NCBI GenBank assembly: GCA_016188575.1
Contig: JACPHN010000163.1
Coordinates: forward strand, 1-43,568
Origin: Candidatus Schekmanbacteria bacterium
Lineage (GTDB): Bacteria > CSSED10-310 > JACPHN01
Length of the DNA: 43,568 bases
Reading direction: 5' to 3'
Shown: one piece after another, positions 1 through 29,584 of the stretch
Layout: each line of letters opens with the position of its first letter
Position numbering within the stretch: position 1 is the stretch's first letter
Notes under the pieces: generated by a model
Told to the model about the DNA's origin: nothing
The model's database searches: none
The model's input: the letters and a program-made list of their open reading frames with translations, nothing else
Made by a program: the position numbers and the translations under genes

Positions 1-252
1 ACCTCGCCGGTGGTTTCGATCTCGAGCGTCACCTCAAGGATGGCAGTGGCGCTGTCGGCGAGCGGCGCGGTGCGGGCGGCGTAAGCGCCCTCGGCGGCGT
101 CCCCCGCCTCGACTCCCCAGCCGCCTTCCGGGGCGAGGTGCCATGGCAGCGCCGTCGTGGTGCCGGTCTCGAACGAGTCACCTGCGGCGGCGGCCACGGT
201 CGCGACCGCGACTAACAAGAGAGAGAGAGAGAGAAGCGACGCGCTGCGTCAT
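1..252 (-). CDS. Secreted adhesin-like protein, 3' end beyond window, out of frame at a (CT)8 tract
   Basis: Read on the minus strand. A GGAGG Shine-Dalgarno at 263-259 sits 6 nt from ATG 252-250, giving MTQRVASLSLSL and then, through the repeat, a stop at 180-178 after about two dozen codons. In another frame, from 218 leftwards, the DNA reads LLVAVATVAAAAGDSFETG, a signal-peptide core and small-residue cleavage region, then a mature domain that stays open to the window edge. One extra CT unit (9 instead of 8) would join start codon and signal peptide exactly. The mature domain (SFETG, PW, GxW, EGAYAAR, alternating beta-strand pattern) resembles the domain after the Thr-Pro linker in the gene at 28889. 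I infer a secreted or surface beta-sandwich protein. A sequencing error or a pseudogene is the alternative. Confidence 0.6.
218..234. repeat. (AG)8 dinucleotide microsatellite; (CT)8 on the coding strand
   Basis: Eight perfect AG units plus a final A. On the minus strand it encodes the Ser-Leu alternation at the signal-peptide core. It is an isolated dinucleotide tract in otherwise GC-rich DNA, lying between start codon and mature protein, where a one-unit change alters the frame. Confidence 0.9.
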
Positions 253-418
253 CGGCATCCTCCGGTTCGCCTCACCACCCAGCATGCTGCGGGCGAACGC
301 GCGGCGCAAGCCGCCGACGGGAGCTGAATCTACCGCCTGTCCGACCGCGAGCTGGGCGGAAAGCGCATCACGAAGACGCCCCACCTCTGCGGCCCGGCTG
401 GGCTGGGCGTGACTGGCG

Positions 419-450
419 GCCGTTAAGACGTCTCGCGACGTCTTAACGGC
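419..450. promoter_or_regulatory. Perfect 14-bp inverted repeat with 4-nt loop
   Basis: The left arm GCCGTTAAGACGTC and the right arm GACGTCTTAACGGC are exact reverse complements around TCGC. No T tract follows, so a classic intrinsic terminator is unlikely. Its position midway between two divergent secreted-protein genes fits an operator for a dimeric regulator, or a strong hairpin insulating the two units. Confidence 0.6.
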
Positions 451-28705: not shown

Positions 28706-28888
28706 GGCCTCCGGCCCGCATCTTCGCGCCGCTACCGCCACGGGCACACCACAGTGTCGCCCAGCCGGACCGCGTGGCCATGCCGCGCCGCGGGCCGCGG
28801 GTTGCGTTCGGGCCCGCGCCCGCATAGGATTGAAGGTGCGATGGGTACTGAAACCCTGGAGGCATGGCGATGCGAGCAAGGTGGCTTA

Positions 28889-29584
28889 ATGGCGTGGCAC
28901 TGCGTTTTTCGAGGGGGGCTTCTGCTCCTGGCGCTGACCGGGTCGCCGGTGTCGGTGCTCGCGGCCACCGCGACTGCCACGGCCACGCCTGATGCGTCGC
29001 CAAGCCCCACCGCGACGCCGACCGCCAGCCCGACGCGCACCGTGACCGCGACGCCCACCACGAGCGCCACTCGCACTCCCTCCGCCACCCGCACCCCCTC
29101 CGCCACCCGCACCCCCACCGCCACCCGGACGCCGACCGCGACCCGCACTCCCACCGCCACCCGCACGCCGACCGTGACCGGCACGCCTACGGTGACGCGC
29201 ACCCCCACGGTGACCCCGACGCCGACGCCCACCCCCGCCGAGAGCTTCGAGTCGGGCGGCCTCGAGGAATCCGAGTATCCCTGGCAAACCTCACCGCTCG
29301 GCGCCTGGTACGGCACCGCTGCCGAGAGCCACCACGGCGCGCTGACGCTGCGTTCGGCCTACCTGCAGCCGGAGGAGACCGCGGCGGTCGCGGTGACGCT
29401 GGACATGCTGGAGAACGAACGGATCCGCTTCTTCGCCAAGACCGACATGCCGCCCGGCGACAGCTTCGCCTTCCTGATCGACGGTATTTCCCGGGGCAGC
29501 ACGGTATTTCCCGGGGCAGCGTGGAGGGCATCGAGGACTGGGACGAGAAGGTGGTCACGGTGGCCCGAGGCCGGCGGACGCTGA
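28889..29584 (+). CDS. 5' part of a secreted GH99-like protein, split by a tandem duplication
   Basis: It encodes a signal peptide (RGGLLLLALTGSPVSVLAA), a Thr-Pro-Arg-rich linker (about 25-125) and a beta-sandwich-like domain starting ESFESGG, related to the domain encoded at the left edge of the window. After DGISRGS the frame runs into the second copy of a 20-bp duplication and ends after TVFPGAAWRASRTGTRR. Removing one copy joins it to the downstream frame. ATG 28889 has AAGG 7 nt upstream. ATG 28870, with GGAGG 7 nt upstream, would give MRARWLNGVALRFSRG and would be in frame with the signal peptide only if the G6 run at 28912-28917 lost one G. Confidence 0.7.
   Translation: MAWHCVFRGGLLLLALTGSPVSVLAATATATATPDASPSPTATPTASPTRTVTATPTTSATRTPSATRTPSATRTPTATRTPTATRTPTATRTPTVTGTPTVTRTPTVTPTPTPTPAESFESGGLEESEYPWQTSPLGAWYGTAAESHHGALTLRSAYLQPEETAAVAVTLDMLENERIRFFAKTDMPPGDSFAFLIDGISRGSTVFPGAAWRASRTGTRRWSRWPEAGGR
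28965..29245 (+). repeat. Degenerate repeat coding for a Thr-Pro-Arg linker
   Basis: Many imperfect 12-bp units of the type CGCACCCCCACCGCC or CGGACGCCGACCGCG, translated as repeats of TATRTP. It is a flexible, probably surface-exposed spacer between signal peptide and the first folded domain. Such tracts can change length by slippage in multiples that keep frame. Confidence 0.8.
29481..29520 (+). repeat. Perfect 20-bp tandem duplication causing a frameshift
   Basis: ACGGTATTTCCCGGGGCAGC occurs twice head to tail (29481-29500 and 29501-29520). Twenty is not a multiple of three, so the second copy shifts the frame. With one copy the reading is DGISRGSVEGIEDWDEKVV, continuous with the downstream frame. 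Confidence 0.95.

What the first reader, a model, noticed from the sequence alone, without database searches (positions are those of the whole stretch)
178..263. Possible phase-variable signal peptide: (CT)8 between start codon and mature protein
With eight units the reading stops at 178. With nine (or six) units, the strong Shine-Dalgarno and ATG 252 join a clear signal peptide and a long open mature domain. Slippage at such tracts switches surface proteins on and off in several pathogens. It would be unexpected in an environmental GC-rich lineage.
Basis: partly seen in the sequence, partly recalled or inferred. Interest (0 to 1): 0.7.

Follow-up and report, generated by a model that had tools for sequence, protein, structure and literature searches.

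The report
CT-repeat switch in a secreted-protein family
A GC-rich bacterium, the only genome held from its genus, carries some thirty related genes for secreted proteins, and at least seventeen of them have a slippery CT repeat in the export signal that probably turns each gene on or off at random, as known in a few pathogens.

Summary
In detail: on the minus strand a strong ribosome site (263-259) and two in-frame ATGs (258, 252) are followed by (CT)8 (233-218); the ATG frame ends at 178 while the signal peptide and mature domain lie in another frame. It is not a lone oddity. The window is the end of contig C271 of a 9.2-Mb genome holding 35 matches to the same N-terminal domain. Of 19 CT tracts of at least 13 nt in the genome, 17 lie at the starts of this family, between start codon and signal core; three related copies carry G10 or G11 there instead. 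Full-length siblings stay open for 876 and 1091 codons after the tract. Of 16 copies with a tract of 12 nt or more and a readable frame, 15 are out of frame. Out-of-frame siblings still show purifying selection (median dN/dS 0.22). Best explanation: slipped-strand phase variation of a large exported-protein family, as in Neisseria opa and Helicobacter oipA. Length variation in a population was not shown: no reads and no sister genome are available. Main doubts are the near-universal OFF state and some decayed copies. Similar CT-tract families occur in other uncultured bacteria.

The parts
281..309 (-). promoter-like element TTGCGC - 17 nt - CATGCT, at a fixed distance before the start
   Evidence: same kind of element, at one of a few fixed distances, in 27 of 30 copies scanned; consensus match only, activity not shown
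259..263 (-). Shine-Dalgarno GGAGG
250..258 (-). two in-frame start codons ATG CCG ATG (258 and 252)
178..252 (-). reading frame as assembled (OFF state), 24 codons then TGA
218..233 (-). (CT)8 tract encoding Ser-Leu repeats; the proposed switch
   Evidence: 4 to 13 units in tract-bearing siblings
195..217 (-). rest of the signal peptide core in the mature frame (LLVAVATV, followed by AAAAG)
   Evidence: cleavage site inferred by eye
3..194 (-). first 64 codons of the exported N-terminal domain (AAAAGDSFETG...LPW...), cut by the contig end
   Evidence: 95% identical to the C232 domain, E 2.3e-32

Best explanation
The window end holds one member of a large family of genes for exported, mostly long proteins. 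Each gene has a promoter-like element, a ribosome site, a short positively charged start, then a CT tract that codes for the Ser-Leu part of the signal peptide. Shown: structure, copy number, different tract lengths among siblings, and that the tract decides whether the start joins the protein frame. Inferred: during replication the tract gains or loses CT units by slipped-strand mispairing; one length in three joins start, signal peptide and mature protein (ON), the other two end translation early, after about 11 to somewhat over 60 codons (OFF). The window copy is OFF as assembled. With many loci switching independently, a clonal population would show many combinations of exported proteins. 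Some members are probably fixed ON by short or interrupted tracts. The job of the proteins is not known; weak metallopeptidase signatures in one suggest secreted or surface enzymes.
For: Family: 35 domain matches in the genome. Tracts: 19 distinct CT tracts of 13 nt or more, 17 at family starts, the other 2 also inside reading frames; control (TG)n gives only 2 tracts, one of them again at a family start. 82 of 98 comparison genomes have no such CT tract, the rest at most 3 by my count. Tract lengths differ in 36 of 47 near-identical sibling pairs, in a stretch of about 16 nt, against 51 small indels spread over about 200 nt downstream in the same pairs (pairs not independent). Full-length open frames after the tract: C195 876 and C143 1091 codons to a stop; C133 574 codons to the contig end. 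Out-of-frame group A copies: dN/dS 0.10 to 0.64, median 0.22, 21 pairs; differences by codon position 108/153/315. TCT is a rare Ser codon (3 of 234 Ser codons in the family domains, 5 of 94 in three window ORFs), so Ser-Leu by TCT-CTC is not codon habit. Poly-G replaces CT in C260, C96 and C144 (G10, G10, G11). The genome also has (AG)8 in a methyltransferase gene, out of frame.
Against: No length polymorphism within a population was seen. 15 of 16 readable long-tract copies are OFF, more than the two thirds expected for random phase (P 0.014). Three group C siblings give dN/dS 0.5 to 1.3 on few changes. Some relatives are decayed: stops within or soon after the domain start in C14b, C249, C67, C102, C4 and C162c. 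MutS is present, and mismatch repair usually restrains dinucleotide slippage (recalled). 23 of 34 copies run into a contig end.
Confidence: 0.78

Rival explanations
1. A decaying gene family: the CT tract is a mutation hot spot where most copies have been broken for good; the long open frames are remnants of recent function.
For: 15 of 16 readable long-tract copies are out of frame, while 7 of 12 short- or no-tract copies have the start in frame with the signal peptide (Fisher P 0.004); several copies also carry stops; group C dN/dS near 1.
Against: Group A copies are all out of frame yet diverged at dS up to 0.3 with dN/dS around 0.2; 876- and 1091-codon frames remain open; the promoter-like element is kept in 27 of 30 copies; the tract persists across subfamilies only 55-60% identical and another repeat type takes its place in relatives.
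Confidence: 0.12
2. Assembly or consensus error at repeats: tract lengths, and so the frames, are wrong.
For: 23 of 34 copies run into contig ends; C77a has a second frameshift close to its contig end.
Against: C195, C143 and C211 lie inside contigs of 117, 111 and 34 kb; C195 and C143 are out of frame like the rest. Flanking DNA upstream differs between copies. Error would not create 17 tracts at one place in one gene family.
Confidence: 0.05
3. Recoding: ribosomal or transcriptional slippage at the tract makes full-length protein from out-of-frame copies at a set rate, so the tract is a constant dampener, not a heritable switch.
For: Nearly all long-tract copies need a frame change.
Against: Long-tract copies are out of frame in both directions (remainder 1 in 13, remainder 2 in C195 and C68), which a single programmed shift cannot serve; CT repeats are not a usual slippery site for ribosome or RNA polymerase (recalled).
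Confidence: 0.06
4. The shared 5' cassette with the tract serves mainly as a crossover point for gene conversion that swaps downstream parts between loci.
For: 5' ends are alike over 100-150 nt while flanks and later parts of the proteins differ.
Against: Does not explain length variation, the strict place in the signal peptide, or poly-G in relatives; compatible with switching as well.
Confidence: 0.04

Closest known systems
Neisseria opa genes (Opa adhesins)
   Same: Multigene family at separate loci; pyrimidine repeat (CTCTT) in the leader-peptide code; frame set by repeat number (PMC3960869, passages seen).
   Different: Pentamer instead of CT; up to 11 genes against about 30 here; beta-barrel adhesins of host-bound bacteria; the proteins here show no Opa match in Pfam and the N-domain no match in PDB beyond chance level.
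Helicobacter pylori oipA and related outer-membrane protein genes
   Same: CT dinucleotide repeat in the signal-peptide code sets ON/OFF by slipped-strand mispairing (PMC10564699, abstract and passages seen).
   Different: Outer-membrane proteins of a host-bound pathogen; here a GC-rich 9.2-Mb genome and exported proteins with Thr-Pro linkers, in a family of about 30.
Phase-variable mod genes of Type III restriction-modification systems
   Same: The genome's C194 gene has an N6/N4 methylase domain followed by (AG)8 and a wrong frame, like the AG repeat in mod of Mycoplasma mycoides (PMC3498834, abstract and passages seen).
   Different: A separate locus, not part of the window; assignment as Type III rests on the domain and on downstream ORFs judged by eye, not on a full test.

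Membership tests
Phase-variable genes switched by simple sequence repeats | repeat inside the coding start whose length sets the frame | tested here: met
Phase-variable genes switched by simple sequence repeats | tract length differs between relatives | tested here: met
   paralogues only: 36 of 47 near pairs differ
Phase-variable genes switched by simple sequence repeats | length varies within a clonal population, reversibly | not testable with these tools
   no reads; no genome closer than the same phylum is held
Phase-variable genes switched by simple sequence repeats | both in-frame and out-of-frame alleles occur | tested here: inconclusive
   1 IN (C211) and 15 OUT among 16 long tracts; 7 IN among 12 short or no-tract copies
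Phase-variable genes switched by simple sequence repeats | protein frame kept under selection behind the tract | tested here: met
   median dN/dS 0.22 in out-of-frame group A; three group C copies do not show it
Neisseria opa family | CTCTT pentamer repeat | tested here: not met
   unit is CT
Neisseria opa / Helicobacter Hop proteins | homologous outer-membrane protein | tested here: not met
   none of the 7 family proteins scanned matched an Opa or Hop family in Pfam

The most novel reading that the evidence does not exclude
CT-tract signal peptides are a recurrent, independently evolved switch for whole families of exported proteins in uncultured bacteria not known to be pathogens; this genome has the largest such set seen here (17 or more loci, plus poly-G relatives and a possibly switchable methyltransferase), kept almost wholly OFF so that rare cells each expose a different protein.
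Probability: 0.45. Interest if true: 0.75.

Novelty: new member of a known kind. Interest (0 to 1): 0.62.

Why it matters
Random switching of surface and secreted proteins is known mainly from pathogens and host-bound bacteria. A family of about 30 exported proteins with the same repeat switch in a large GC-rich genome of a poorly sampled phylum would show that such bet-hedging also serves other lifestyles, or would betray an unknown host or phage pressure. It gives a directly testable set: sequencing reads of the source sample would show whether tract lengths vary at 17 loci.

Tried and rejected
Looked for sister genomes to compare orthologous tracts: nothing closer than the same phylum among the genomes held, and the 7 genomes of that phylum have no match to the domain. 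Of the other comparison genomes, 7 of 98 have distant domain matches; no CT tract comparable to the family's was seen in 17 of those loci. Named genome collection scan with the domain alignment: none confirmed. Viral contigs: none confirmed. Rfam on the window: nothing. PDB by profile: one chance-level hit, E 0.33. Absence of mismatch repair as the cause: not supported, a MutS is there (MutL not searched). G runs of 10 or more: 36 distinct in the genome (my count), not treated as enriched; only some look like switches. Other-strand coding across the tract (Arg-Glu repeats, 2-412 and 143-412): considered chance in a GC-rich stretch, without homologue search. Start downstream of the tract (TTG 218): rejected as main start, no ribosome site and no charged start.

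Rows dropped before counts: dN/dS left out 12 of 36 listed places (cut, non-family, or with stops or second frameshifts) and pairs under 40 codons; one search left out 6; the 15-of-16 count leaves out C77a (signal peptide in frame, second frameshift later) and C205a (cut at the contig end); the frame of C189 was set by the identity of its signal peptide with that of C118, as its domain is cut off. The 12 short- or no-tract copies of the Fisher test were sorted by me: IN = C258, C77b, C153, C67, C162, C4, C162c; OUT = C232, C14b, C123, C14a, C102; C4 and C162c count as IN by their signal peptide only. The poly-G copies, C249 and C144 were not in that test. Chance figures are post hoc.

Papers: no paper on CT-repeat families in uncultured bacteria came up in searches; that is a limited search of an open-access library. 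Search listings, abstracts and passages only were read, no whole paper.

Full report
What is there. On the minus strand of the window a promoter-like element (309-281), GGAGG (263-259), two in-frame ATGs (258 and 252) and (CT)8 (233-218) precede a signal-peptide core and an exported domain that is open to the window edge. From either ATG the frame ends at 178; the mature frame is a different one, in which I see no usable start codon upstream of the tract before a stop (read by eye).

Not one gene but a family. The window is contig C271, 1-43568, of a 9,204,407-base genome in 275 contigs. The first 320-390 bases recur at 7 other places at 86-96% identity, and a protein search with the N-terminal domain gives 35 matches. 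Sequence around 36 places was examined (34 family places and 2 other tracts). Subfamilies differ in the start peptide (M(P)MTQRVA, MPRRVM, MSWRVP, MSRRLN) but carry the tract at about the same spot, some 19 to 32 nt after the first ATG (30 copies listed, three with only 1-2 units).

Tracts. A scan for TCTCTCTCTCTCT finds 19 distinct tracts in the genome; 17 are at family starts. The other two are also in reading frames: (AG)8 within a DNA methyltransferase gene, and (AG)13 directly after an ATG of an unassigned ORF that is in frame. The control (TG) repeat gives 2 tracts, one at a family start (C14) and one, (CA)10, in a class-V aminotransferase (cysteine-desulfurase-like) gene whose parts lie in two frames there. 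Of 98 comparison genomes 16 have any such CT tract, at most 3 each (my count of distinct tracts); of 7 genomes of the same phylum one has a single tract. Three more distant family members carry G10 (C260, C96) or G11 (C144) in the signal region instead, all out of frame (C144 judged by eye), and C239 has G7.

Frame state. For tracts of 12 nt or more 18 places are known; 15 are out of frame, 1 (C211) in frame, 1 (C77a) has a second frameshift, 1 (C205a) is cut by the contig end. Random phase would give two thirds out; 15 or more of 16 has P 0.014. Copies with short, broken or no tract are in frame at the signal peptide in 7 of 12 (Fisher P 0.004). I read this as: members expressed by default have lost the switch; members with a live tract are mostly OFF in the sampled population. 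The same bias, 27 of 32 out of frame, appeared among matches in other genomes that had a frame of 150 or more codons after the tract (my count; P); chance ATGs may inflate that figure.

Selection. Among copies of group A, all out of frame, dN/dS is 0.10 to 0.64 with median 0.22 over 21 pairs, and differences fall mostly on third positions (108/153/315). Complete siblings stay open for 876 (C195) and 1091 (C143) codons. So the proteins have probably been made for much of their recent history. Against this, three group C siblings give 0.5 to 1.3 on 5 to 11 changes per pair, and several relatives have stops. Ser codon TCT makes up 3 of 234 Ser codons in the family domains, so the tract is not explained by codon choice.

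Proteins. The N-terminal domain (about 140 residues, well conserved) has no Pfam match in the proteins scanned; a Thr-Pro-rich linker and long C-terminal parts follow. C211 shows weak Reprolysin-type matches under the curated cut-offs with the motif HEVGHAIGAAH, C143 a Glucodextran_B domain over its cut-off. I infer exported or surface proteins, some perhaps metallopeptidases.

Wider context. Most genomes have one; an uncultured Desulfovibrio (BRZ_IP__bin7) and a Campylobacterota genome (MS502-29) have five matches each, with similar 5' parts and tract lengths of 11.5-16.5 and 8.5-15.5. Two contigs of a Phycisphaerales MAG (UBA5793) carry near-identical genes (225 of 233 aligned positions identical) with 18.5 units in frame and 15.5 units out of frame; they share 939 bases at 97% around the start and a further 400 bases at 86%, so they may be paralogues or strain alleles. 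So the design has probably arisen more than once outside the classic pathogens.

Comparison with the known. Opa genes have CTCTT repeats in the leader code and up to 11 loci (PMC3960869, passages); H. pylori oipA has CT repeats in the signal-peptide code (PMC10564699, abstract and passages). Mono-, di- and trinucleotide repeats are suppressed in prokaryotic genomes and long SSRs go with host dependence (PMC4060949, passages); [quoted passage not shown] The mechanism is thus known; protein family, lineage and scale are new as far as the searches go.

Verdict. Confirmed observation, supported interpretation, confidence 0.78 for phase variation; the missing proof is length variation in reads.

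Noticed in passing
window 28858-29520 (+): A more distant relative of the family lies in the same window: start ATG 28864, G6 in the signal region and out of frame with the signal core (LLLLALTGSPVSVLA), and a perfect 20-base tandem duplication (29481-29500, 29501-29520) that shifts the frame later; its sibling C144 has G11 in the signal region.
   Followed up: partly
L078 253-2167 (C194): DNA methyltransferase (N6_N4_Mtase, E 2.7e-34) with (AG)8; the frame after the tract is the wrong one and the likely C-terminal part lies in another frame: possible phase-variable methyltransferase with a helicase/restriction-like ORF downstream (judged by eye).
   Followed up: partly
L091 1972-2658 (C86): ATG directly followed by (AG)13 at the start of an ORF without Pfam match, in frame as assembled.
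   Followed up: partly
L119 1062-2262 (C58): (CA)10 in the middle of a class-V aminotransferase (cysteine-desulfurase-like) gene, parts in two frames.
   Followed up: partly
L136, L145, L152 (G run): Three sibling genes with G10-G11 at the end of a hydrophobic stretch (AIAGGG...VDALVEPLE), upstream and downstream frames differing: a possible second repeat-switched family.
   Followed up: partly
window 324-387: Dispersed repeat of about 60 bases (GTCTTCGTGATGCGCTTTCCGC...) found at some 30 places in the genome, upstream of some family copies and elsewhere.
   Followed up: no
window 419-450: Perfect inverted repeat GCCGTTAAGACGTC-4 nt-GACGTCTTAACGGC between two divergent genes.
   Followed up: no
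ends of many contigs of G000: 23 of 34 family copies run into a contig end: the family itself seems to break the assembly.
   Followed up: partly
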